Assembly: GCF_000716535.1 (NCBI RefSeq)
Contig: NZ_JNWV01000022.1
Coordinates: 97,095-161,094, forward strand
DNA length: 64,000 nt
Origin: Streptomyces flaveolus
Lineage (GTDB): Bacteria > Actinomycetota > Actinomycetes > Streptomycetales > Streptomycetaceae
Direction: 5' to 3'
Below the pieces are notes generated by a model. That model ran no database searches and was not told the origin of the DNA. It worked only from the letters and a program-made list of their open reading frames with translations. This document shows positions 14,079 to 26,583 of this stretch, one piece after another. Each line of letters begins with the position of its first letter. Positions within the stretch are counted from its first letter, which is position 1. The translations under genes and the position numbers were made by a program.

Positions 14079-15536
14079 GTGACACACCCGCCGAAGAGCA
14101 GCGCGGCGCCACCGCCGGCCGGGCCCGCCGGTGTGGCCGGTGTGGCCGGCATCCCCGGCATCCCCGCTCAGCCCGGGCCGCCCGGACCCCCCGCGGCCGT
14201 CGGTCCTGGGGTGCCGCCCGCGCGCCGGACCGCCTTCGCCGAGGGTGCCGAGCGGTTGCGGGCCGCCGCGACGACCGAGCCGGGGCGGTTGCGGATCATC
14301 GGTGCCGTCCTGGCGCTGCTGGTCGTCGGGTTCGGAACGGTCACCGCCTGGCAGACCAGCGACCGCGCGGCCGCCGCCGACGACGTGCTGCACCACAGCC
14401 AGCCGCTCAGTTCCGGCGCGGCCGGCATCTACCGGTCGCTCGCCGACGCCAACACCGCTGCCTCCAGCGGGTTCCTGGCGGGCGGACAGGAGAACGCGCG
14501 GTCCAGGGACCGGTACGAGAAGGACATCCGCACCGCCGCCGACGGGCTCGTCAACGCCGCCGCCAACGCCGAGCCGGGCTCCGCGTCCGAGGAGACCATC
14601 ACCGAGCTGAACCGGCTGCTGCCCGAGTACAAGGGCCTCATCGAGCGGGCCCGGACGTACAACCGGCAGGGCTATCCGGTCGGCGGCGCCTACCTGCGGT
14701 ACGCCAACGAGAAGATGCAGAAGGAGATGCTCCCGGCGGCGGAGGATCTCTACACCACGGAGAACCGGCGGCTCGACGCCGACTACGCGGACGCGACGCC
14801 GTACCCGTGGATCGCCATCGGGCTCGGGCTGCTCGCGCTCGCCGCGCTCGGCTGGGCCCAGCACCGCATGTACCGGCGCACCCACCGCGTCCTCAACCAC
14901 GGCCTGGTCGCCGCCAGCGCCGCGACGACCGTCGCCCTGCTGTGGCTGGTCGTGGGTCACGCCGTCGCCCGGTCGGGGCTCGACGGCTCCTACCAGCACG
15001 GCATCCGCTCGCTCAACGTCCTGCACGACGCCCGGATCGCCTCCCTGAAGGCGCGCGGCAACGAGAACCTGAGCCTGGTGGCGCGCGGCGCGGAGACCGT
15101 CACGGTCGACGGCACGACGTACGACGCCTACTACCGCGACTTCGACAAGGACATCGCCGTGCTCGGCAAGGGGCTGACCGAGGCGGCGCGGCTCGCCGAC
15201 GACCAGGGGGGCACCGCACCGGTCGAGGCGGCCGAGGGCAACATGACGGTGTGGAAGCAGCGCCACTCCGCGGCCCGCGCCGAGGACGAGAACGGCAACT
15301 ACCAGCAGGCGCTGGACAAGGTGATCGGCGCCAAGGGCGCGACCGCCGAGTGCTTCGACGGCGTCGACCGCAGTCTCGCCCGGGCCATCGACCATGAGCA
15401 GGCCCAGTTCCAGAAGGCGGCCGCGGACGGGCGGGACGCGATGACCGGGCTGCCGGAGGGCGCCGCCGTCCTGGCGGTGCTGGGCGCGGCCGGCGCCGTG
15501 GCCGGCATCGGCCGCAGACTTTCGGAGTACCGGTGA
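14079..15536 (+). CDS. glnX: GlnX-like membrane sensor protein of the PknG pathway
   Basis: This 485-residue membrane protein opens with a Pro/Gly-rich collagen-like tail (residues about 8-50). Four membrane helices follow: about 72-94, 245-263, 277-299 and 460-480. Between them are two helical extracytoplasmic domains of similar length that read like duplicated four-helix sensor modules. In mycobacteria GlnX has this topology and passes an amino-acid signal from the lipoprotein GlnH to the kinase PknG. Here the next gene encodes a GlnH-like binding protein and a PknG-like kinase follows, which is the main basis for the call. GTG 14079 lies after GGGGGAGG. The stop overlaps the next start (GTGA). 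Confidence 0.75.
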   Translation: MTHPPKSSAAPPPAGPAGVAGVAGIPGIPAQPGPPGPPAAVGPGVPPARRTAFAEGAERLRAAATTEPGRLRIIGAVLALLVVGFGTVTAWQTSDRAAAADDVLHHSQPLSSGAAGIYRSLADANTAASSGFLAGGQENARSRDRYEKDIRTAADGLVNAAANAEPGSASEETITELNRLLPEYKGLIERARTYNRQGYPVGGAYLRYANEKMQKEMLPAAEDLYTTENRRLDADYADATPYPWIAIGLGLLALAALGWAQHRMYRRTHRVLNHGLVAASAATTVALLWLVVGHAVARSGLDGSYQHGIRSLNVLHDARIASLKARGNENLSLVARGAETVTVDGTTYDAYYRDFDKDIAVLGKGLTEAARLADDQGGTAPVEAAEGNMTVWKQRHSAARAEDENGNYQQALDKVIGAKGATAECFDGVDRSLARAIDHEQAQFQKAAADGRDAMTGLPEGAAVLAVLGAAGAVAGIGRRLSEYR

Positions 15537-16582
15537 CAGGGGGCAAGGCGATGGACCTGAGCCGTGCGCGGTCCGCCCTGCGGGGCTGGGGCGGGGTCGC
15601 CGCGATGGCGGTGCTGTGCGCGCTGGCGCTGGCGTTCGTCCTGCTGCTGCCGTGCACCCAGCGGACGCCGGACGACCCGCAGCGGGCCGGGCAGAAGGTC
15701 GCCACCGGCACCCAGGCCCGCGCCGACGGGTGCGTGGACGCCGAGGCGCACGAGCAGACACTGGCACCGTCGGACGCGGACGGTCCGACGATCGACGCGA
15801 TCAAGGCACGCACGGGCGCCAAGCGGAAGCTGATCGTCGGCGTCGACCAGAACAGCTACCGCTGGGGCTACCGCAACCCCAACACCGAGGGCGCCCGGCT
15901 GGAGGGCTTCGACATCGACCTCGTCCACCGGATCGCCGAGGACATCCTCGGGGACCCGGATGCGGTGCAGTTCAAGGCCATACCGACCAACCAGCGCATC
16001 CCGGCGGTCGAGGACGGACGCGTCGACATGGTCGTGCGCACCATGACGATCACCTGTGACCGGCTGAAGCAGGTCGCGTTCTCCGCGCCCTACTTCAAGA
16101 CCGGCCAGCAGGTCCTCGCCCCCAAGTCCTCACGGATCACGGGCTACGACGACTCGCTGGCCCACAAGAAGGTGTGCACGGCGGCCGGTTCGACCGCCCA
16201 CGCCAAGCTGGCCGCCGACAAGAAGGACGGCCGGCTGCCCGCCACCACCGACATCTCCACCACCGTGCCGAACCAGCTCGACTGCCTGGTCCGGCTGCAA
16301 CTCGGCGAAGTGGACGCGGTGGTGACCGACGGCGCGCTCGCCGCCAGCCAGGCCGCGCAGGACCCGACCGTCGCACTGAAGGGCGAGCCGTTCACGACCG
16401 AGTACTACGGCGTGGCGATGAAGAAGGACGCCGACGATCTGGTACGCCGGGTCAACCGCGTTCTGGTGGACTACCGCGCACACGGCTGGCAGACGTCGTA
16501 CGACGACTGGCTGTCGGCGACACTGGGCAAGGACTCGGCCGCGTCGAAGCCGCCCGCGCCGCAGTACCGGCGCAGCAGTTGA
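15533..16582 (+). CDS. glnH: GlnH-like glutamate/aspartate-binding protein
   Basis: This 349-residue family 3 solute-binding protein has an N-terminal membrane segment (about residues 20-38) ending in LLLPC, which is only a weak lipobox because proline precedes the cysteine. The binding domain has 'LEGFDIDLVHRIAEDIL' and 'VAFSAPYFKTGQQVLA', signatures of polar amino-acid receptors, with Arg in MVVRTMTI likely holding the ligand carboxylate. No ABC permease or ATPase is nearby, so it acts as a sensor, not in uptake. It overlaps glnX by four bases; ATG 15551 is a possible later start. In mycobacteria GlnH senses aspartate and glutamate for PknG; the same is inferred here. Confidence 0.78.
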   Translation: MTGGKAMDLSRARSALRGWGGVAAMAVLCALALAFVLLLPCTQRTPDDPQRAGQKVATGTQARADGCVDAEAHEQTLAPSDADGPTIDAIKARTGAKRKLIVGVDQNSYRWGYRNPNTEGARLEGFDIDLVHRIAEDILGDPDAVQFKAIPTNQRIPAVEDGRVDMVVRTMTITCDRLKQVAFSAPYFKTGQQVLAPKSSRITGYDDSLAHKKVCTAAGSTAHAKLAADKKDGRLPATTDISTTVPNQLDCLVRLQLGEVDAVVTDGALAASQAAQDPTVALKGEPFTTEYYGVAMKKDADDLVRRVNRVLVDYRAHGWQTSYDDWLSATLGKDSAASKPPAPQYRRSS

Positions 16583-16623
16583 GCCGTACCCGACCGGAAC
16601 AGACAGCAAGCGAGAGGTGATCG

Positions 16624-17904
16624 ATGGGCGTCACGGACCCCGCCGGGCCGGTGATGGACCGGGACGAGGTGGACCGTGCGCTGGCGCGGCTCGGCCAGGA
16701 GCACGAGGCGATCGAGACCTCGCTGCTGGCCCTGCAGGACCACGCGGGCCGCAGACTCCTCGAAGGCGCGGAGCTGACCGGTGCCACCAAGGAGCGCTGG
16801 CAGGCCACGGAGGAGCGGATCACCCGGCTGTGGGCGTACTTCGACGCCTACACGGCCGCGCTGCGCGGCGCCCGCGAGATCCGCTCCCGGCGCCGCTGGT
16901 CCAGCCGGGAGGACCTCGCGGAGCTGACCGGGCTGCTGCGCGGCGAGTCCGTGACCGTCCCCGGCGGCGGGAACGGCAGGCTGAGCGAGACGTTCTCGCT
17001 GTCCGCGCTGGTGGACCGGATGAACGAGCTGTACGCGACGAGCCTGGACATGATCGTCGCCGCCGACGCGGTCTGGTCGGCGCTCCCCGCGCGGATCGAT
17101 TTACTCGCCGCGGAACTCCAGCGCACCCGGCAGCTCGCGCACTCCGTCGGGGTGCGCCCCGGCGAGCACCCGGCCGGTGACGACCTGGAACGGATCACGC
17201 GCACGCTGACCAGACTGCGCGAGGACGTCGTCTCCGACCCGCTCGCCTTCTGGGTGCCGGCCGAGGGCAGTTCGGCGCCCGGCGGCGGACGCCCGGACAC
17301 GACGGTGTACGACCGTGAGGCGCGCGCCCTGGAGGACGTGCGCCGGGAGATCGACGCCGTGCTGACCGTCCGCCAGGACGCGGAGGCGCGGCTGATCCGC
17401 CTGCGGGACGTGCTCTCGCGCGCGGACCGCACCCTGGCGGAGGCGCGTACCGCGCGCGGCGAGGTGCTGGCGAAGATCGCCGCGACCGAGGTGCCGGTGG
17501 TGAGCGGTCCGCCGACCGCGCTCCAGGAGCAGCTGGCGACCGCGGCCGAGTACCGCCGCCAGGCCCAGTGGCACCGGCTCTCCCCGCTGCTGGAGGCGCT
17601 GGAGGAGAAGGCGGAGGACGAACTGCTGCGCGCCCGCGAGTCGTTGACCGCGGTGACCGCGCCGCTCGCGGTCCGTGCCGAGCTGCGCGGCCGGCTCGAC
17701 GCGTACAAGGCGAAGGTCGCCCGGCACGGCCTCGCGGAGGACCCGCTGCTGGTCGAGCGGTACGACGCGGCCCGCCGCATGCTGTGGAGCGCGCCCTGCG
17801 ACCTGCGCGTGGCGGAACAGGCCGTGCTGCGCTACCAGCAGGCGGCGGCGGAACTGCTCGGCAGCGCGAGCGCGCCGCGGGACCGTGAGGGGGACGAGTC
17901 ATGA
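16624..17904 (+). CDS. Coiled-coil protein of the PknG locus, unknown function
   Basis: This 426-residue cytoplasmic protein is almost all helical and rich in Arg, Glu, Leu and Ala, with long heptad-like stretches (about 10-70, 150-200, 235-300 and 310-410). No signal peptide or membrane helix is present and no enzymatic motif is visible. ATG 16624 follows GAGAGGTG. Its end overlaps the kinase start by four bases (ATGA), so it is made together with the kinase and may be a scaffold or substrate. It has no counterpart in the mycobacterial three-gene operon that I recall. Confidence 0.75.
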   Translation: MGVTDPAGPVMDRDEVDRALARLGQEHEAIETSLLALQDHAGRRLLEGAELTGATKERWQATEERITRLWAYFDAYTAALRGAREIRSRRRWSSREDLAELTGLLRGESVTVPGGGNGRLSETFSLSALVDRMNELYATSLDMIVAADAVWSALPARIDLLAAELQRTRQLAHSVGVRPGEHPAGDDLERITRTLTRLREDVVSDPLAFWVPAEGSSAPGGGRPDTTVYDREARALEDVRREIDAVLTVRQDAEARLIRLRDVLSRADRTLAEARTARGEVLAKIAATEVPVVSGPPTALQEQLATAAEYRRQAQWHRLSPLLEALEEKAEDELLRARESLTAVTAPLAVRAELRGRLDAYKAKVARHGLAEDPLLVERYDAARRMLWSAPCDLRVAEQAVLRYQQAAAELLGSASAPRDREGDES

Positions 17905-20366
17905 GTCAGCCGGTGCAGGCCTGCCAGCGGCCGGGCTGCGAGGGGACGTACGAGGACGTCGGCGGCGGCGAGCTGTACTGCGACACGTGCGGTCTCGCGC
18001 CGGTCGTCTCGGCGAGAGGCATGGTGGGCTCGCCGCCCACCGGGGTCGCCCGGGGGGCGGCCGACAGCGGCAGTTCCCGCAGCTCGCGCAGCTCGCGTAC
18101 GTCCTCGCAGTCGTCGAGGTCGCGCCGCTCGGTGTCCGGGCGGCTGTCCCGGTCGCTGTCGGGGAAGCCCACGGGCCGCTCGGTGTCGGTGCGCAGCTCC
18201 GGCTCGTCGTCCGGGGCCTCCTCGCGGGGGCGGCTCGGCGCCGGGCTGGTCTCGGTGCCGCAGGTGCCGCGGCCCGACCCGCGCGCGATGGTGCTGGAGA
18301 ACCCGGAGGTGCCGGAGCGGAAGCGGTTCTGCTCGCGGTCGGACTGCGGGGCGCCGGTCGGCCGGGCCCGGGGCGACCGGCCGGGCCGCACGGAAGGTTT
18401 CTGCACCAAGTGCGGGCACCCGTACTCCTTCGTGCCCAAGCTGAGGGCCGGGGACATCGTGCACGGCCAGTACGAGGTGGCGGGCTGCCTGGCGCACGGC
18501 GGGCTCGGCTGGATCTACCTGGCCGTGGACCGGGCCGTCTCCGACCGGTGGGTGGTGCTCAAGGGCCTGCTGGACACCGGCGACCAGGACGCGATGGCCG
18601 CGGCGATCTCCGAGCGGCGGTTCCTCGCGGAGATCGAGCACGCCAACATCGTGCGGATCTACAACTTCGTGGAGCACCTGGACCAGCGCACCGGCTCCCT
18701 CGACGGCTACATCGTCATGGAGTACGTCGGCGGCAAGTCCCTGAAGGAGATCGCCAACGCCCGCCGGACGCCCGACGGCCGCCGCGACCCGCTGCCGGTG
18801 GAGCAGGCGTGCGCGTACGGCATCGAGGCGCTGGAGGCGCTCGGCCATCTGCACAGCCGGAACCTGCTGTACTGCGACTTCAAGGTCGACAACGCCATCC
18901 AGACCGAGGACCAGCTCAAGCTGATCGACATGGGCGCGGTCCGCCGGATGGACGACGTCGAGTCGGCGATCTACGGCACGGTGGGCTACCAGGCGCCGGA
19001 GGTCGCCGAGTCCGGCCCGTCCGTGGCCAGCGACCTCTACACGGTGGCCCGCACGCTCGCCGTGCTGGCCTTCGACTTCCAGGGCTACACCAACGTCTAC
19101 GTCGACTCCCTGCCCGACCCCGACACCATCGAGGTCTTCCGCCGTTACGAGTCCTTCTACCGGCTCCTGGTGCGCGCCACCGACCCCGACCCGGGCCGCC
19201 GGTTCGCCTCCGCGCAGGAGATGGCCGAGCAGCTGACGGGTGTGCTGCGCGAGGTCGTCTCGCTCCAGACCGGGCGGGCACGGCCCGCGCTGTCGACGCT
19301 GTTCGGGCCCGAGACGAAGGTCACGGACACGGAGTTGTTCCCCCGGCTGCACGGCGACGTGTCCCGGCTGGGCGCCCGGCCGCTGCGGAAGGCTCACGCC
19401 ACCGCACCGCCGCCCCCGCCGGCCCTGGTCAGGCCCGTCGACACGCCGGCCGCCGCGCTCGCCCTGCCCGTCCCGCTCGTCGATCCGAACGACCCCAACG
19501 CAGGTTTCCTGGCGGGCCTGCTGGCCTCGGCGCCGGCCGAGCTGATGAGCGTGCTGGCGGCGGCGCCCACGCAGACCGAGGAGACCCGGCTCCGGCAGAT
19601 CCGCGCCCGGCTGGAGAGCGGTGACCACCAGGGCTCGCTGATGAGTCTGGCCAAGCTGGACGAGGAACGGCCCGACGACTGGCGGGTGGTGTGGTACCGG
19701 GGCGTGGCCGCGCTGGTCACCGGCGACTTCGAGCACGCCGCGCTCGCCTTCGACGCGATCTACGACGCCTTTCCCGGCGAGGCCGCGCCCAAGCTGGCGC
19801 TCGGCCTGTGCGCGGAGGTGCTGGGCCAGCTGGACAACGCGGGCGAGTACTACCGCCTGGTGTGGACGACCGACCCGAGTTTCGTGAGCGCCGCGTTCGG
19901 GCTGGCCCGGGTGCAGCTCGCGGCCGGGGACCGGCGGGGCGCGGTGACGACGCTGGAGTCGGTGCCGGAGGCCTCCATCCACTACACGGCCGCCCGGGTC
20001 GCCGCCGTCCGGGCCCGGCTGAGACAGCGCACGGCGAGCGCGGGTGACGTACCGTTCCTGGACGACCTGACGGCCGCCGCCGGTCAGGTCGAGGCACTCC
20101 AGGCGTACGGCCTGGACCCGGCGCGGCGCGAGCTGTTGTCGGCGGAGGTGCTCGGCTGTGCGCTGGACTGGATACTCTCCGGGGGCCAGGGCACCGGGCC
20201 CGCCGCCGGAGGCCGGGTGCTGCTGGGCAGCGGTCTGGACGAGCGGGGCCTCCGCTTCGGCCTGGAGCGCGCCTACCGCACGCTGGCCCGGCTGGCGCCC
20301 GGCGGCGAGGAGAGGATCGAGCTGGTGGAACGGGCCAACCGTTACCGCCCCCGGACGTGGGTGTAG
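17901..20366 (+). CDS. pknG: PknG-like serine/threonine protein kinase with zinc ribbons and TPR tail
   Basis: This 821-residue soluble kinase has the PknG domain order. It starts with an extra zinc ribbon (Cys8/13/27/30), then a Ser/Arg-rich linker (55-110), then a rubredoxin-like ribbon (Cys144/149 and Cys168/171). The kinase domain is about 185-450, and a TPR-like helical tail runs 510-821. The Gly-rich loop is CLAHGGLGWIY (196-206), Lys221 is the ATP lysine, Asp326 in YCDFKVDN is the catalytic base, and Asp343 in LIDMGA replaces the usual DFG. The 'GCLAHGGLGWIYLA' and 'FVEHLD' segments are specific to PknG. In mycobacteria PknG phosphorylates the FHA protein GarA to steer 2-oxoglutarate metabolism. 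Here it sits between glnH and a PP2C phosphatase and a large FHA protein, so a similar switch is likely. Confidence 0.9.
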   Translation: MSQPVQACQRPGCEGTYEDVGGGELYCDTCGLAPVVSARGMVGSPPTGVARGAADSGSSRSSRSSRTSSQSSRSRRSVSGRLSRSLSGKPTGRSVSVRSSGSSSGASSRGRLGAGLVSVPQVPRPDPRAMVLENPEVPERKRFCSRSDCGAPVGRARGDRPGRTEGFCTKCGHPYSFVPKLRAGDIVHGQYEVAGCLAHGGLGWIYLAVDRAVSDRWVVLKGLLDTGDQDAMAAAISERRFLAEIEHANIVRIYNFVEHLDQRTGSLDGYIVMEYVGGKSLKEIANARRTPDGRRDPLPVEQACAYGIEALEALGHLHSRNLLYCDFKVDNAIQTEDQLKLIDMGAVRRMDDVESAIYGTVGYQAPEVAESGPSVASDLYTVARTLAVLAFDFQGYTNVYVDSLPDPDTIEVFRRYESFYRLLVRATDPDPGRRFASAQEMAEQLTGVLREVVSLQTGRARPALSTLFGPETKVTDTELFPRLHGDVSRLGARPLRKAHATAPPPPPALVRPVDTPAAALALPVPLVDPNDPNAGFLAGLLASAPAELMSVLAAAPTQTEETRLRQIRARLESGDHQGSLMSLAKLDEERPDDWRVVWYRGVAALVTGDFEHAALAFDAIYDAFPGEAAPKLALGLCAEVLGQLDNAGEYYRLVWTTDPSFVSAAFGLARVQLAAGDRRGAVTTLESVPEASIHYTAARVAAVRARLRQRTASAGDVPFLDDLTAAAGQVEALQAYGLDPARRELLSAEVLGCALDWILSGGQGTGPAAGGRVLLGSGLDERGLRFGLERAYRTLARLAPGGEERIELVERANRYRPRTWV

Positions 20367-20369
20367 TCG

Positions 20370-21851
20370 ATGTCGCAGATGCCCCAGCAGGCCGCACTGG
20401 CGAAGTGCCCGAGCTGCGCGGAGCCGGTGGAGCCGGGTGACCTGTTCTGCGGAGCGTGCGGATACGACCTTTCGTCGGTGCCCGCGCCGCCGCAGGACCA
20501 CCCGACGCTCACCATGACGGGCCCCGCCGGGCCCGGGGACGGCACGGCGTGGCCCACCCCCGAACCACCCGGCCCCACGGCCTCACCGGCACCCCACCTG
20601 CCGACGGACCTGCCGGGCACCGACTCGGGCGGCACACCGCTGTCCGGTGAGGGACCCGACCCCGCCTCCGCGGCCGCACCTCCGCCGGGACAGGAGTTCG
20701 GGCCCGCCACGGGCGGCGTGCCGTCGGCGGCGGGTGAGGGCGGCTCCGGCCCGGGCGGCACGCCGCCGCCCCCGCACGGGAACGGCCCCGTCCCCGGTGG
20801 TGCGCAGCAGGGCGGGCAGGAGGCCGACGCTGAGCACTCCTCCGGCTCCGGGGTGCGGTTCGACCGGCCGGACGAGCCCGACGAGTACCCGTTGCAGGCG
20901 CCGGACCCGCGGCTGGCCTCCGCACCGGCCGATCCGGCGCAGCTCTGCGTGGCCTGCCGGGCGGGCCGGGTGGACAGCGACGGCTACTGCGAGAACTGCG
21001 GGCACGCCCAGCCGCGCGAACGCGACCACGTGGAGCGGGAGTCGGGGCCGGTCGCCGCCGTCAGCGACCGCGGCCTGCGCCACCACCGCAACGAGGACGC
21101 CTTCGCCGTCGGCCACACCACGCTGCCCGACGGCACGCCGGCCGCGCTGGCGATCGTCTGCGACGGCGTGTCGTCCGCGACCCGCCCCGACGACGCCTCC
21201 CTGGCCGCCTCCCAGGCGGCCGGCGACACGCTGCTGACCGCGCTGCCGCGCGGCACCCACCCGCAGGCGGCGATGCACGAGGCGATCGTCGCCGCCGCGC
21301 AGGCCGTCAACGCGCTGGCCGAGGAGCCCGCCACCGCGCGCGAGCACGCCCCGCACCAGAACGCGCCGGCCTGCACGATCGTCGGCGCGGTGGTCACCCC
21401 GGGGCTGCTGGTCGTCGGCTGGGTCGGCGACAGCCGCGTCTACTGGGTGCCCACCGACCGCACGGCCCCGCCCGCCCGGCTGACCGAGGACGACTCCTGG
21501 GCCGCCCAGATGGTCGCCGCCGGCCTGATGAGCGAGGCCGAGGCGTACGCCGACGCGCGTGCCCACGCCATCACCGGCTGGCTCGGCGCGGACGCCTACG
21601 AACTCGAGCCGCACACCGCGTCGTTCAAGCCGGACCGGCCCGGCGCCGTGGTGGTGTGCACCGACGGACTGTGGAACTACGCCGAGACGGCCGAGGAGAT
21701 GTCCGAGGTCGTCCCGCCGGACGCGGCGGACCGCCCGCTGCACAGCGCGCGGGTGCTGGTCGGTCACGCCCTGGACGGCGGGGGCCACGACAACGTAACA
21801 GTGGCGGTCCTGCCGTTCCCGGTGCCGTCGCAGGGGGCAGGATCGGCCTGA
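20370..21851 (+). CDS. PP2C-type protein phosphatase with two zinc ribbons
   Basis: This 493-residue protein starts three bases after the kinase stop. Residues 13-30 form a C-x2-C...C-x2-C ribbon. A Pro/Gly-rich linker runs to about 185, followed by a second ribbon (CVACRAG...YCENCG, about 192-212). The PP2C phosphatase domain is about 222-485. Metal-binding signatures are present: R-H-H-R-N-E-D-A near the start, 'AIVCDGVSSA', 'WVGDSRVYW', 'VCTDGLWNY' and the terminal GGHDNVTV. It most likely removes the phosphates placed by the adjacent PknG-like kinase. Confidence 0.9.
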   Translation: MSQMPQQAALAKCPSCAEPVEPGDLFCGACGYDLSSVPAPPQDHPTLTMTGPAGPGDGTAWPTPEPPGPTASPAPHLPTDLPGTDSGGTPLSGEGPDPASAAAPPPGQEFGPATGGVPSAAGEGGSGPGGTPPPPHGNGPVPGGAQQGGQEADAEHSSGSGVRFDRPDEPDEYPLQAPDPRLASAPADPAQLCVACRAGRVDSDGYCENCGHAQPRERDHVERESGPVAAVSDRGLRHHRNEDAFAVGHTTLPDGTPAALAIVCDGVSSATRPDDASLAASQAAGDTLLTALPRGTHPQAAMHEAIVAAAQAVNALAEEPATAREHAPHQNAPACTIVGAVVTPGLLVVGWVGDSRVYWVPTDRTAPPARLTEDDSWAAQMVAAGLMSEAEAYADARAHAITGWLGADAYELEPHTASFKPDRPGAVVVCTDGLWNYAETAEEMSEVVPPDAADRPLHSARVLVGHALDGGGHDNVTVAVLPFPVPSQGAGSA

Positions 21852-21966
21852 GGGCCGTATCCGACGGGGGAACGGCACGGGGAAGCCGCGGCGGACCGGA
21901 GGGGACCGGTCCGCTCACAGTCGTCGCCTCGCGTCGGCGAGGTGTCCGAGGGGGATGTGAGCGAGC

Positions 21967-23310
21967 ATGGCCAATTTCGCGAAGTCGAACGTGCCACGGT
22001 TCTCGGTGGACGTCTACCAGAACGAGTACCTGCCCGAGGGCGGCAGCGAGGTCAACGCCATCGTCACGGTGACCGCGACCGGCGGCGGCACCGTAGGCGG
22101 CGCGGTCACCGCGCCGGTCCACGCGCCGGGCGGGCGGCCGTCCGCCGCCGTGGCGATCATGGTCGACTGCTCGGGTTCCATGGACTACCCGCCGACCAAG
22201 ATGCGCAATGCCAGGGACGCCACGGCCGCCGCGATCGACACCCTGCGCGACGGCACCCGCTTCGCGGTGATCGGCGGCACGCACGTGGCCAAGGAGGTCT
22301 ATCCGGGCGGCGGGCGGCTCGCGGTCGCCGACGCCACCACCCGCGAGCAGGCCAAGCAGGCACTGCGCCGGCTGAGCGCGGGCGGCGGTACGGCCATCGG
22401 CACCTGGCTGCGGCTCGCCGACCGGCTGCTGTCCGCGGCGGACGTGACCATCCGGCACGGCATCCTGCTCACCGACGGCCGCAACGAACACGAGTCGGCG
22501 GAGGACCTGCGGGCCACGCTGGACGCCTGCGCCGGCCGGTTCACCTGTGACGCGCGGGGCGTGGGCACCGACTGGGAAGTGAAAGAAGTCACAGGGATCG
22601 CCTCGGCGCTGCTCGGCACCGCCGACATCGTCGCCGACCCGGCCGGACTGGCCGCCGACTTCACGCGGATGATGGAGACGACGATGGGCAAGGAGGTCGC
22701 CGACGTCTCCCTGCGGGTGTGGACGCCGGTCGGCACGACCATCCGGTTCGTGAAGCAAGTCGCCCCCGCCGTCGAGGACTTGACCGGTCGTCGTACCGAG
22801 GCCGGGCCGCGCGCCGGGGACTACCCGACCGGGTCCTGGGGCGACGAGTCCCGCGACTACCACCTGTGCGTGACGGTCCCGCCGGCCGGGCTCGGCCAGG
22901 AGATGCTCGCCGCGCGGGTCTCCCTGGTGATCCCGCAACCGGACGGAACCGCCCAAAGTCTCGGCGCGCAGGGCCTCGTACGGGCGGTCTGGACCGACGA
23001 CATGACCGCCTCCACCGCGCTCAACCCCCAAGTCGCCCACTACACCGGGCAGGCCGAACTGGCGCAAGCCATCCAGAAGGGCCTCGACCTTCGCAAAGCG
23101 GGAGATTTCGATGGAGCAACCGCCAAACTGGGGCGCGCGGTTCAGCTCGCGAACGCCTCGGGGAACGCGGATACTGCGAAACTGCTTGCGAAGGTGGTGG
23201 ACGTGGTCGACGCCGTGACAGGTACTGTGCGGTTGAAGACGAGGGTCGCGGAGGCGGACGAGATGACTCTGGAGACCCGGTCCACCAAGACTGTTCGTGT
23301 GAAGAAGTGA
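21967..23310 (+). CDS. von Willebrand factor A domain protein
   Basis: This 447-residue protein has a VWA domain at about residues 55-230. The metal-ion site is intact: D-C-S-G-S followed by the downstream threonine loop and LLTDGRN. The C-terminal part is beta-rich and ends in a short helical bundle ('GLDLRKAGDFDGATAKLGRAVQLA') resembling a single TPR hairpin. VWA proteins with kinase, phosphatase and FHA partners are a recurring signalling set in actinobacteria. It begins 115 bases after the phosphatase and ends 34 bases before the FHA gene. Exact role unknown. Confidence 0.85.
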   Translation: MANFAKSNVPRFSVDVYQNEYLPEGGSEVNAIVTVTATGGGTVGGAVTAPVHAPGGRPSAAVAIMVDCSGSMDYPPTKMRNARDATAAAIDTLRDGTRFAVIGGTHVAKEVYPGGGRLAVADATTREQAKQALRRLSAGGGTAIGTWLRLADRLLSAADVTIRHGILLTDGRNEHESAEDLRATLDACAGRFTCDARGVGTDWEVKEVTGIASALLGTADIVADPAGLAADFTRMMETTMGKEVADVSLRVWTPVGTTIRFVKQVAPAVEDLTGRRTEAGPRAGDYPTGSWGDESRDYHLCVTVPPAGLGQEMLAARVSLVIPQPDGTAQSLGAQGLVRAVWTDDMTASTALNPQVAHYTGQAELAQAIQKGLDLRKAGDFDGATAKLGRAVQLANASGNADTAKLLAKVVDVVDAVTGTVRLKTRVAEADEMTLETRSTKTVRVKK

Positions 23311-23344
23311 CCCTCGGAAGCGTAGGAGAAGGGGAAGCACCGAC

Positions 23345-25108
23345 ATGCCGACCTGCCCGAACGGACACCAGTCGGGTTCCGACGACTGGTGCGAGGTCTG
23401 CGGTCACCGCATGGCCGGTGCCGTACCTCCGCCCCCTCCGCCGCCCCCGGGCGGTTACGGTTTCCCGCCCCCGCAGGGCGGCCCGGCCGGCGCCCGCCCG
23501 CAGCAGGGCGCCGGGTCCGACCCGGAGCCGGAGCTGTGCCCGCAGTGCCGTACGCCCCGCGAGGGCGGCGCGCCCTTCTGCGAGGAGTGCCGGTGGAACT
23601 TCCTGACCAACACGGCGACCTCCTACACCCCGGCCGCCCCGCGCCCGTCGCAGCCTCGGTTCCAGCCGCCGAGCTCGACGTACGGCGGGGGTGACGGGTA
23701 CGAGTACCAGGGCTCGCGGCCCTCTCAGGTGAACCGGCCCGCCGAGCCGATCCCGTCCTTCCACAGCGAGCCGTCGGGCCCGACGCCGTTCGGCGGCGAC
23801 CGCGGCCCGTCCGGTCCGCCGACCTCCCCCGGCCCCTCGGGCCCGCCCGCCTTCGGCGGCGGCAGCCAGCGCCCGTCAGGGCCGCCGCAGGGCTTCGGCC
23901 AGGGGCCGGGTCAGGGTGGTCAGGGCCAGGGCGGTCCGGGGCAGGGCCCGGGGGCCGGCGGCCCGTCCGGTCCCGGTGGTTTCGGTGGCCGGGGCACGGT
24001 GCCGGGCCAGGGCTCGGGTGGCCCGGGTTCCGGCGGCCCGTCCGGCTTCGGTGGCGGTCCCGGGCAGGGACCGGGTTCCGGTGGTCCGGGTTCCGGTGGT
24101 CCGGGTTCCGGTGGTCCGTCGGGATTCGGCGGCGGTCCGGGGCAGGGGCCGGGTGCCGACGGCCCGTCCGGGTCGTCCGGGTTCGGCCGCGGTCCGGGGC
24201 AGGGTCCCGGTGGCCCCGGCGGCCCGTCCGGCTTCGGCGGCGGCCAGGGTCCCGGTGGCCCCGGCGGCCCGGGATCCGGTGGCCCGTCCGGTTTCGGTGG
24301 CGGTCCGGGGCAGGGTCAGGGTCCGGGTCCGGGTTCCCAGGGCTCCTCCCCCTTCGGGCGCGAGCGCTCCCGTCCGGGTGGTCCCACTCCGCCCGGCCCC
24401 TCCGGCTTCGGCGGTGACCCCTCGCGTCAGGTGCCGCCGCCCGGCGGTCCCGGCGGTGCCCCGCAGGCGTTCCAGCAGTCCGGTGCGTCGGCTCCGCCCG
24501 CGTTCCCGGGCCAGACCCGCCGGCCCCCGGCCGCCGACGACGACTGGGTGATCTCCCCGCCGGCGTCCACCGGCCCCGGCGGTCAGGGCGGCGCCTACGG
24601 CTACCCGCAGTCCGGGGGCACCCAGACCCCGCCGGGACCGGGCGGACCGGGCGGCTTCCCCCAGGCGCCGCAGGCACCGCACGCGCCGCAGGCCCCCCAG
24701 CCGACCACCTGGACCGCGACCATCGGCCCGGACCGCGAGTACTTCATGGCGATGATGCAGCGCTCCGGACCCGAGGCCGCGGGTCTGAACCTGCCCGCGT
24801 ACTCGCCCGAGCAGCAGCGCACGCTGACCGGGAACCAGGTCACCATCGGCCGCCGCCGGCACTCCACCGGCGACACCCCCGACATCGACCTGTCGGTGCC
24901 GCCGGAGGACCCGGGTGTCTCGCACCAGCACGCGGTGCTGGTGCAGCAGCCGGACGGCAGCTGGGCGGTCGTCGACCAGAACTCGACGAACGGCACCACG
25001 GTCAACATGTCGGAGGAGCCCATCCAGCCGTTCGTACCGGTCCCGCTCCAGGACGGCGACCGGGTGCACGTGGGCGCCTGGACGACGATCACCGTCCGCC
25101 GGGGCTGA
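23345..25108 (+). CDS. FHA-domain protein with zinc ribbons and a Gly/Pro/Gln-rich linker
   Basis: This 587-residue protein has two N-terminal zinc ribbons (Cys4/16/19 region and C-x2-C...C-x2-C near 60-80). A roughly 350-residue low-complexity linker of Gly, Pro, Gln, Ser and Phe follows, with repeats such as GGPSGFGGGPGQGPG. The C-terminal FHA domain lies at about 495-587. The phosphothreonine-binding features are GRRRHS, then S-x2-H (VSHQHAVL) and NSTNGTTVN. It should bind phosphothreonine proteins made by the PknG-like kinase. Unlike GarA/OdhI it lacks the short N-terminal ETT phospho-motif, so it is not a direct GarA equivalent. It is the last gene of the unit. Confidence 0.88.
   Translation: MPTCPNGHQSGSDDWCEVCGHRMAGAVPPPPPPPPGGYGFPPPQGGPAGARPQQGAGSDPEPELCPQCRTPREGGAPFCEECRWNFLTNTATSYTPAAPRPSQPRFQPPSSTYGGGDGYEYQGSRPSQVNRPAEPIPSFHSEPSGPTPFGGDRGPSGPPTSPGPSGPPAFGGGSQRPSGPPQGFGQGPGQGGQGQGGPGQGPGAGGPSGPGGFGGRGTVPGQGSGGPGSGGPSGFGGGPGQGPGSGGPGSGGPGSGGPSGFGGGPGQGPGADGPSGSSGFGRGPGQGPGGPGGPSGFGGGQGPGGPGGPGSGGPSGFGGGPGQGQGPGPGSQGSSPFGRERSRPGGPTPPGPSGFGGDPSRQVPPPGGPGGAPQAFQQSGASAPPAFPGQTRRPPAADDDWVISPPASTGPGGQGGAYGYPQSGGTQTPPGPGGPGGFPQAPQAPHAPQAPQPTTWTATIGPDREYFMAMMQRSGPEAAGLNLPAYSPEQQRTLTGNQVTIGRRRHSTGDTPDIDLSVPPEDPGVSHQHAVLVQQPDGSWAVVDQNSTNGTTVNMSEEPIQPFVPVPLQDGDRVHVGAWTTITVRRG
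24073..24117 (+). repeat. 15-bp tandem repeat, three perfect copies
   Basis: GGGTTCCGGTGGTCC is repeated three times head to tail inside the FHA gene and encodes Gly-Ser-Gly-Gly-Pro units. Looser copies continue on both sides (about 23930-24340), so linker length probably varies between strains by slippage. Confidence 0.9.
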
Positions 25109-25114
25109 CCGCGC

Positions 25115-26092
25115 TCAGGGCAGGGGCCAGGCGTACGGCCCCCGCGGGTCGTCCAGCCACGCCCAGGCGTGCTCGCCGGCGACCGTGACGCCGTACCGCC
25201 CGCGCCCCGGCTCGCCCTCGCGCTCCCACAGGGCGTACGCCTCCTGCGGGTCGAGCGTGCCGTGGGTCAGCGCGAGCAGGAAGCGGAACTGCTCCTGCTC
25301 GCGGGCCCGGCGAGGCAGCCCGGCCGACGAGACGAACTCGGGACGCGCCCTGGGCCCGCCGCGCAGCGGCACGAAGAAGGCGGCCCCGGGCAGGAACGGG
25401 CCCTCGGCGTGTTCCGCGTCCCGGACGGTGAGCGTGAGCAGACCGGTGGCGAGCGGGGTGAGGACGCGCGCGCCGGGTCGGCACTGGGCGAGCCAGGCGC
25501 GCGGCACCGTGGGCAGCTCGCAGGTGGCGATGATCCGGTCGAAGGGGGCGCGTTCGGGCACTCCGCGCGCGCCGTCGCCGGTGACGACGACGGGGCGGTG
25601 GCCGGCCGCCGCCAGGTGCTGCCGGGCCGACTCGGTGATCTCCGGTTCCAGGTCGATGGTGGTGACGAGGTCGTCGGCGCCGAGCCGGTGGGCGAGCAGG
25701 GCCGCGTTGTAGCCGGTGCCGGCGCCCACCTCCAGGACCCGGTTGCCGTCCTCGACGCGCAGGGCGACCAGCATGCGGGCCATCAGGGAGGGCTGGCTGC
25801 TGGAGGAGAGCAGCTCGCCGTCGCGCAGCCGGGTGGCCAGCGGTACGTCCGCGTAGGCGCCGCGCACCCAGCGTTCCCGGGCCCGGCGGTCGGGGCTCTC
25901 GCGCCAGAGGCGCTCGTAGCCGCGCGCCCCGGTGACGTAGTAGTACGGCACGAACAGGTGCCGGGGCACCGACGCGAACGCCTCCCGCCACACCGGGTCG
26001 TCCGTCCAGGCCCCGTCGGCGTCGATCTCCCGCACCAGCTCGGCCCGCGCCGCGTCGGCGAGAGCCTCGATCTCGGTGTCGTAGGCGCCCAT
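25115..26092 (-). CDS. Protein-L-isoaspartate O-methyltransferase
   Basis: This 325-residue SAM-dependent methyltransferase repairs isoaspartyl residues. The SAM motif is VLEVGAGTGYNAALLA at about residues 120-135. The family pre-motif with the invariant Ser (LLSSSSQPSLMARML) lies about 15 residues earlier, and 'PFDRIIATCELPTVP' is the later catalytic segment. An extra C-terminal region of roughly 100 residues (from PLRGGPRARPEF) exceeds the usual length of about 210 residues and is common in actinobacterial versions. Start ATG 26092. It converges on the FHA gene with six bases between the stops. Confidence 0.85.
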   Translation of the reverse strand: MGAYDTEIEALADAARAELVREIDADGAWTDDPVWREAFASVPRHLFVPYYYVTGARGYERLWRESPDRRARERWVRGAYADVPLATRLRDGELLSSSSQPSLMARMLVALRVEDGNRVLEVGAGTGYNAALLAHRLGADDLVTTIDLEPEITESARQHLAAAGHRPVVVTGDGARGVPERAPFDRIIATCELPTVPRAWLAQCRPGARVLTPLATGLLTLTVRDAEHAEGPFLPGAAFFVPLRGGPRARPEFVSSAGLPRRAREQEQFRFLLALTHGTLDPQEAYALWEREGEPGRGRYGVTVAGEHAWAWLDDPRGPYAWPLP

Positions 26093-26178
26093 GGGTCCAC
26101 AGTAGGGGCGGGCGGTCCGCGGACCGGGCTGGTCCTAAGCCTCGAGTCCTCGGTCACCCGGTCTGAGACGATGGACGG

Positions 26179-26583
26179 GTGAATGAGATTCGGCGCGGCA
26201 CGCTTCAGGAGCAGACCTTCTACGAGCAGGTCGGCGGGGAGGAGACCTTCCGCCGGCTCGTCCACCGTTTCTACGAGGGGGTCGCGGAGGACCCGCTCCT
26301 GCGGCCGATGTACCCGGAGGAGGACCTGGGTCCGGCCGAGGAGCGGCTGGTGCTGTTCCTGATGCAGTACTGGGGCGGCCCGACGACGTACAGCGCGAAC
26401 CGCGGCCACCCCCGGCTGCGCATGCGGCACGCCCCGTTCACCGTGGACCGGGCGGCGCACGACGCCTGGCTGCGGCACATGCGGGTGGCCGTCGACGAGC
26501 TGGGGCTGTCGGAGGAGCACGAGCGGACGCTGTGGAACTACCTGACGTACGCCGCCGCGTCGATGGTGAACACCCCGGACTGA
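26179..26583 (+). CDS. glbO: Truncated haemoglobin, group II (GlbO type)
   Basis: This 134-residue globin has the group II (trHbO) sequence. The B10 tyrosine is in HRFYEGVAEDPLL, the CD1 tyrosine in MYPEEDL, the proximal F8 histidine in RMRHAPF, and the G8 tryptophan in HDAWLRHM. The E-helix segment is 'QYWGGPTTYSANRGHPRLRM'. It binds haem and can handle oxygen, NO or peroxide; role in the host is not shown. GTG 26179 starts 87 bases from the divergent methyltransferase start. Confidence 0.92.
   Translation: MNEIRRGTLQEQTFYEQVGGEETFRRLVHRFYEGVAEDPLLRPMYPEEDLGPAEERLVLFLMQYWGGPTTYSANRGHPRLRMRHAPFTVDRAAHDAWLRHMRVAVDELGLSEEHERTLWNYLTYAAASMVNTPD

What the first reader, a model, noticed from the sequence alone, without database searches (positions are those of the whole stretch)
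14079..25108. Expanded GlnX-GlnH-PknG relay with its own phosphatase, VWA and FHA proteins
Seven co-directional genes, most overlapping or abutting, encode a four-helix membrane protein with two helical sensor modules, an amino-acid-binding protein with no transporter, a coiled-coil protein, a PknG-like kinase, a PP2C phosphatase, a VWA protein and a large FHA protein. The first, second and fourth match the mycobacterial aspartate/glutamate-sensing GlnX-GlnH-PknG operon. The other four are additions that could make a complete write, erase and read phospho-circuit at one locus. The FHA protein lacks the ETT motif of GarA/OdhI, so the reader differs from the mycobacterial one.
Basis: partly seen in the sequence, partly recalled or inferred. 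Interest (0 to 1): 0.72.

Follow-up and report, generated by a model that had tools for sequence, protein, structure and literature searches.

The report
Full seven-gene PknG amino-acid relay
A soil actinomycete carries a seven-gene amino-acid-sensing kinase circuit with its own phosphatase and three partner proteins, and the three-gene version known from tuberculosis-type bacteria looks like a cut-down form of it.

Summary
The seven genes are real, co-directional, and their active sites are conserved. GlnX, GlnH and PknG belong to the mycobacterial relay. But 'expanded' is probably backwards: of 115 PknG loci with enough flank, 58 carry all six partners and 31 only GlnX and GlnH (sample not random). 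The Mycobacteriaceae-like three-gene clade is nested beside seven-gene Nocardia (100/100). One origin of the three-gene state is rejected (AU p 0.0001; group named after seeing the tree). VWA and FHA relatives are missing genome-wide in 8 of 8 such genomes.

New link: PknG has an N-terminal zinc ribbon where a VWA gene adjoins: of 127 main-type loci, 81 have both, 40 neither, 4 ribbon only, 2 VWA only (both apparent sequence faults). Independent pairs over all PknG types: none opposite, median p 0.008-0.016; main type alone 5 pairs, p 0.06.

A GarA with ETTS lies elsewhere in this genome, so the cluster's FHA protein is an extra reader. Roles of VWA, FHA and coiled-coil proteins are inferred.

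The parts
14079..15536 (+). glnX-like: membrane protein with two helical bundles
   Evidence: NCBIfam NF058618 497 bits; AF2 pLDDT 90.8
15533..16582 (+). glnH-like amino-acid-binding protein (alternative start 15551)
   Evidence: SBP_bac_3 7.7e-27; PDB 6h1u 6.8e-43
16624..17904 (+). helical coiled-coil protein (CC), no named family
   Evidence: no Pfam or NCBIfam match; AF2 pLDDT 93.7
17901..20366 (+). pknG-like Ser/Thr kinase
   Evidence: PF16918, PF16919, PF00069; PDB 2pzi 1.2e-169
17922..17993 (+). N-terminal zinc ribbon of PknG (residues 8-31)
   Evidence: C8, C13, C27, C30 at 98-100% in 90 aligned rows
18324..18437 (+). rubredoxin of PknG (about residues 142-179)
   Evidence: PF16919; C144, C149, C168, C171
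19440..20357 (+). TPR domain of PknG (residues 514-819)
   Evidence: PF16918
20370..21851 (+). PP2C phosphatase with two zinc ribbons (residues 13-31 and 193-211)
   Evidence: PF13672, NF033484 below its cut-off; D243, D265, D354, D432, D474
21967..23310 (+). VWA protein with intact MIDAS
   Evidence: PF13768, PF18571; D67, S69, S71, T142, D170 all 100% in 90 rows
23345..25108 (+). FHA protein: two zinc ribbons, long Gly/Pro-rich linker, C-terminal FHA
   Evidence: PF00498; pocket residues

Best explanation
A complete amino-acid-sensing Ser/Thr phosphorylation circuit, probably the older form of the GlnX-GlnH-PknG relay. GlnH binds an amino acid outside the cell; GlnX carries the state across the membrane to the TPR domain of PknG (proposed for mycobacteria and Corynebacterium, inferred here). 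Active PknG phosphorylates GarA, encoded elsewhere in this genome, and its own N-terminal linker or local partners (inferred). The local FHA protein docks on phosphothreonine and acts as a second reader; the PP2C enzyme resets the circuit; the VWA and coiled-coil proteins form a metal-dependent scaffold that holds the kinase by its N-terminal zinc ribbon (inferred from co-occurrence). In Mycobacteriaceae-like and many Pseudonocardiaceae lineages the VWA, FHA and coiled-coil genes, usually the PP2C gene, and the kinase ribbon were lost, leaving the three-gene relay.
For: Family matches. All six partners beside PknG in 58 of 115 loci with enough flank, in this order or with GlnX-GlnH moved to the end. 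Functional residues conserved. Pairwise-distance correlation with PknG over the 58 full loci: CC 0.86, VWA 0.83, PP2C 0.81, FHA 0.76, against GlnX 0.52 and GlnH 0.47. Mycobacteriaceae-like three-gene clade sister to seven-gene Nocardia plus G542 PknGs, 100/100. Ribbon-VWA co-occurrence. VWA and FHA relatives absent genome-wide in 8 of 8 f3 genomes other than G542. Intermediates: L103 lacks VWA, FHA and CC but keeps PP2C and ribbon; L062 lacks them at the locus and its ribbon is partly gone; Lentzea L120 and L121 lack them and the ribbon.
Against: No experiment. Four main-type loci have a ribbon without a VWA gene (L073, L075, L103, L157). Within the main PknG type there are only five independent pairs, p 0.06. 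'Main type' is set by HMM score, and some lower-scoring rows (L060, L063, L065-L067, L114) fall inside it in the tree. Several PknG2 rows lack both ribbon and VWA, so an outgroup argument from the two chosen rows is weak. The Pseudonocardiaceae three-gene group is placed with modest support and its base is unresolved. Nocardia hold both forms, so transfer is possible. The distance correlation is not corrected for the many Streptomyces rows. No phosphoacceptor is found in the FHA protein. GlnH Trp232 is Gln here.
Confidence: 0.58

Rival explanations
1. Ribbon and VWA gene go together only through shared ancestry; there is no physical link.
For: Much of the co-occurrence lies in a few large clades; only five independent pairs within the main PknG type, p 0.06.
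Against: Over all PknG types 6.6 of 8 (or 7.7 of 12) pairs go the same way and none the opposite way, median p 0.016 (0.008); intermediates L103, L062, Lentzea.
Confidence: 0.25
2. The circuit works as a TerY-P-like triad (VWA, PP2C, kinase with zinc ribbon) whose output is stress or defence rather than central metabolism; GlnX-GlnH only supplies the trigger.
For: Same three protein classes as the TerY-P triad described in PMC11090510 (passages); a second PknG2-VWA cluster in this genome has a trypsin-like protein.
Against: Ribbon is N-terminal, while the C-terminus is TPR; VWA has no PADLOC match (I do not know whether that library holds a TerY-P model); GarA-like genes are in 30 of 30 genomes tested.
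Confidence: 0.2
3. The three-gene relay is ancestral and the four genes were gained several times, perhaps by transfer.
For: Nocardia as a genus and one f3 assembly (G542, several PknGs) show both forms; some PknG2 rows lack ribbon and VWA.
Against: Three-gene forms are not one clade (AU) and the Mycobacteriaceae-like one is nested; G313 keeps a VWA frame with two stops beside an FHA gene, away from pknG, which looks like decay.
Confidence: 0.17
4. The downstream genes are unrelated neighbours that merely share a transcript.
For: 115-bp gap before the VWA gene.
Against: Linkage kept across families, also after rearrangement to CC-PknG-PP2C-VWA-FHA-GlnX-GlnH; joint absence.
Confidence: 0.06

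Closest known systems
GlnX-GlnH-PknG-GarA/OdhI relay of Mycobacterium and Corynebacterium (PMC6069109, PMC9769921, PMC8546545; passages of each)
   Same: GlnX family, GlnH-like binding protein, PknG with rubredoxin and TPR (Corynebacterium lacks the rubredoxin), GarA in the genome
   Different: Four more conserved genes; kinase has an extra N-terminal zinc ribbon; GlnH Trp232 is Gln; GarA has its own ribbon here
Threonine phosphorylation pathway of type VI secretion: TagQRST, PpkA, PppA, Fha1 (PMC5995506, passages)
   Same: Proteins upstream of a kinase, a cognate phosphatase and an FHA protein; PpkA has a C-terminal VWA domain (PMC1262709, passages)
   Different: VWA is a separate protein; kinase is PknG-type; no secretion gene among the seven
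TerY-P triad (PMC11090510, passages)
   Same: VWA, PP2C and a kinase with a zinc ribbon
   Different: Ribbon at the N-terminus; TPR and rubredoxin on the kinase; FHA, GlnX and GlnH present

Membership tests
PknG kinases | Rubredoxin, kinase and PknG-type TPR in one chain | tested here: met
   PF16919, PF00069, PF16918 over their cut-offs
GlnX family | Score over NCBIfam NF058618 cut-off | tested here: met
   497 against 250 bits
Protein kinase G-activating GlnX (equivalog NF041460) | Score over 780 bits | tested here: not met
   184 bits
Asp/Glu-sensing GlnH | Side-chain contacts Arg147, Thr162, Trp232 of M. tuberculosis GlnH | tested here: inconclusive
   Arg and Thr kept, Trp replaced by Gln
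GarA/OdhI (for the cluster FHA protein) | OdhI model cut-off and ETT motif | tested here: not met
   20 against 200 bits; no Thr conserved at 93% or more before the FHA domain
TerY-P triad | Kinase with C-terminal zinc ribbon | tested here: not met
   Ribbon at residues 8-31; TPR at 514-819 of 821
TerY-P triad | TerY-like VWA protein | tested here: inconclusive
   No PADLOC match for the VWA protein; presence of a TerY-P model in that library not checked
T6SS threonine phosphorylation pathway | Kinase fused to a VWA domain | tested here: not met
   VWA is a separate gene
GlnX-GlnH-PknG relay | Amino-acid-dependent activation of PknG | not testable with these tools
   needs experiment

The most novel reading that the evidence does not exclude
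The model PknG system of mycobacteria and corynebacteria is a repeatedly stripped remnant of an older seven-protein circuit, in which the VWA protein (with FHA and coiled-coil partners) holds PknG by an N-terminal zinc ribbon; once the partners are lost the ribbon decays.
Probability: 0.48. Interest if true: 0.75.

Novelty: new variant of a known kind. Interest (0 to 1): 0.6.

Why it matters
PknG has been studied mainly in lineages that, on this evidence, lack four of its partners. If right, a laboratory Streptomyces would show how the kinase is reset and read. It turns a zinc ribbon into a testable docking prediction, may explain why the N-terminal tail of mycobacterial PknG is poorly conserved, and gives three uncharacterised protein families (coiled-coil, VWA, FHA) a pathway.

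Tried and rejected
GarA's own zinc ribbon as part of the same co-loss: rejected. Of 31 GarA loci (own genome and 30 others) it is present in 11, absent in 17, unread in 3 because my script took a wrong frame. It is absent in two seven-gene genomes (G423, G536) and present in the reduced G313.

A conserved ETT-like acceptor in the cluster FHA protein: none at 93% or more.

Fold relatives: coiled-coil protein, best PDB hit EzrA 4uxv, E 0.034, TM 0.38; GlnX, no hit at E 0.001 or better, first ranks are TTYH channels with TM under 0.2, and one bundle fits the Vc1313 ligand domain (8bsa_B, TM 0.75 of the target, E 0.3). Neither is significant by E-value.

Defence membership: the VWA protein has no PADLOC match; the kinase has 32 (25 shown, none named TerY-P), PP2C one weak match. 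Promoter and terminator scan: nothing above shuffles.

The first HMM annotation recruited shadow frames of this GC-rich DNA and was thrown away; one search is the clean one. In one search I coded L103 as ribbon-less; that was wrong, and repeats the pair test with the right coding and weaker numbers, which I use.

Rows dropped: from the tree, L072, L141, L178, L185, L188, L191, L167, L088 (truncated, shifted or doubtful), any other row with under 3.2 kb downstream and no VWA, and surplus rows of large genera; from the ribbon count, 4 of 131 for short flanks; from the gene-content count, 16 of 131. L158, counted as 'neither', has masked letters in the region. L167 is called frame-shifted by my reading only. 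L113 counts as lacking FHA by my threshold but has a weak FHA hit beside it.
Full report
OBSERVATION. Their products are a GlnX-family membrane protein, an amino-acid-binding protein, a coiled-coil protein with no Pfam or NCBIfam match, a PknG kinase, a PP2C phosphatase, a VWA protein and an FHA protein. The genome has 10.3 Mb in 232 contigs. Among the 120 listed relatives of the coiled-coil protein (of 2676), those that carry an organism name are Streptomyces.

ANATOMY. In loci with a VWA gene the working parts are conserved (74 to 90 aligned rows by family): kinase K221, E238, D326, N331, D343; phosphatase D243, D265, D354, D432, D474; VWA MIDAS D67, S69, S71, T142, D170; FHA G502, S526, H529, N549, with R503 Arg in 68 and Lys in 6 of 74 rows. 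So writer, eraser and reader are likely active (inference). Zinc ribbons recur: one at the N-terminus of PknG besides its rubredoxin, two in PP2C, two in the FHA protein. Predicted structures are confident: coiled-coil protein pLDDT 93.7, nearly all helical; GlnX pLDDT 90.8, two helical bundles between what I read as four membrane helices. Fold searches gave no significant hit.

DISTRIBUTION. PknG_TPR matches occur in 20 of 158 genomes drawn from the phylum (12 over the cut-off), 67 of 196 from the class (65 over), 94 of 99 from the window's order and 60 of 150 from the order of a three-gene genome (59 over). In 14 of 14 same-genus genomes whose main locus I fetched, the seven genes stand in the same order. 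Named seven-gene loci include Kitasatospora, Streptacidiphilus, Saccharothrix, Kibdelosporangium banguiense, Phytohabitans and six Nocardia (N. colli, inohanensis, neocaledoniensis, transvalensis, panacis, xishanensis); in Nonomuraea, Actinomadura, Actinoallomurus and Nocardiopsis GlnX-GlnH stand at the end. Most Amycolatopsis loci (not L126, which has ribbon, CC, PP2C, VWA and FHA), Kutzneria, Prauserella, Kibdelosporangium aridum, Tsukamurella and Nocardia farcinica have no CC, PP2C, VWA or FHA partner at the locus, as described for M. tuberculosis (PMC6069109, passages). Of 131 main-type PknG loci, 115 had enough flank: 58 with all six partners, 31 with GlnX and GlnH only, 6 lacking only a recognised CC, 5 with GlnX, GlnH and PP2C, 15 other. 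'Main type' means HMM score of 800 or more, minus eight loci that I set aside as PknG2; it is not strictly a clade. The sample is not random: the 80 named loci are the best matches to one alignment and the unnamed ones are my picks. Family names for f-codes are my inference.

DIRECTION OF CHANGE. In a tree of 119 PknG cores without their N-termini and a careful tree of 47, the Mycobacteriaceae-like three-gene clade is sister to seven-gene Nocardia and G542 PknGs, 100/100. The Pseudonocardiaceae three-gene rows lie elsewhere; their nesting beside seven-gene Saccharothrix and relatives has modest support and is unresolved. Holding both three-gene groups together is rejected (p 0.0001; named after the tree was seen). 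The two outgroup rows have ribbon and VWA; other PknG2 rows have neither, so the root state is not proven. VWA relatives (E 1e-20) and FHA relatives (E 1e-12) are absent in 8 of 8 f3 genomes other than G542; the locus was read in four of them. In six f93 genomes there is no FHA relative, and VWA relatives occur only in G481 and G531, each beside its PknG2. G313 keeps a VWA frame with two stops beside an FHA gene far from pknG. I read this as repeated reduction.

RIBBON AND VWA. Of 127 main-type loci, 81 have ribbon and VWA, 40 neither, 4 ribbon only, 2 VWA only; L191 starts inside the gene and L167 reads as frame-shifted there. Of 26 PknG2-like rows the pattern search gave 10 both, 7 VWA only, 8 neither, 1 ribbon only (L065); by eye the seven also show the motif, degenerate in L107. 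Phylogenetic pairs over 119 rows: with ribbon as first trait 8 pairs, 6.6 same, 0 opposite, median p 0.016 (range to 0.0625); with VWA first 12 pairs, 7.7 same, 0 opposite, median p 0.008; main type alone 5 pairs, 4.7 same, p 0.06. L103, L062 and Lentzea look like stages: partners lost, ribbon intact; ribbon partly gone; ribbon gone. PP2C is still present in these, so the ribbon tracks VWA, FHA and CC rather than PP2C.

READERS. This genome has a separate GarA with ETTS and a ribbon (189 bits, just under the 200-bit cut-off). All 30 other genomes tested have a GarA-like hit, 18 over the cut-off. The cluster FHA protein is therefore an extra reader, not a substitute.

LIGAND. Residues matching Arg147, Thr162, Arg169 and Asp250 of M. 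tuberculosis GlnH are kept here, Ser164 is Thr. Trp232 is Gln in 23 of 23 Streptomyces-type rows and 7 of 8 Kitasatospora-type rows, Trp in 13 of 45 other rows with a VWA neighbour and in 37 of 42 rows without. The ligand may differ.

LITERATURE. PMC6069109 (passages) reports the three-gene operon as conserved in Actinomycetales and names Streptomyces; the passages seen name no further gene of this cluster. PMC8546545 (passages) calls the N-terminal sequence poorly conserved. PMC9769921 was seen in passages. Searches: PknG with zinc ribbon, 0 papers; PknG with VWA domain, 1 paper, PMC1262709, whose passages do not treat this cluster; searches list no title on the extra genes. The library is open-access only, so I claim no more than that.

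VERDICT. Known relay, new variant: four conserved partners, a probably reversed history, and a ribbon-VWA link that can be tested in a laboratory Streptomyces.

Noticed in passing
L045 (G000:C20:228307-248254): Second PknG-like cluster in the same genome: trypsin-like protein, PknG2 with ribbon, VWA protein, an unassigned protein with a weak GlnX-like match, and an SBP_bac_1 binding protein.
   Followed up: partly
L118 (G542:C144): A seven-gene cluster on a 25.7-kb contig of an assembly grouped with Mycobacteriaceae-like genomes; transfer, plasmid or stray contig.
   Followed up: no
L001:1018-1848 (G000:C31): GarA of this genome carries a zinc ribbon before its ETTS motif; 11 of 31 GarA loci read do.
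   Followed up: partly
G313:C1:5071372-5073570: Stop-bearing VWA frame beside an FHA gene, away from pknG; looks like a decaying remnant.
   Followed up: partly
window 25115-26583: PCMT-like methyltransferase on the - strand and a bacterial-type globin on the + strand follow the cluster.
   Followed up: no
L195 (record titled Microtetraspora glauca): PknG and cluster group with Streptomyces; the record may be misnamed.
   Followed up: no
L166 (record titled Acidimicrobiaceae MAG): Seven-gene cluster in a MAG labelled outside the usual hosts; its PknG groups with f69-type rows, so binning error or transfer is possible.
   Followed up: no
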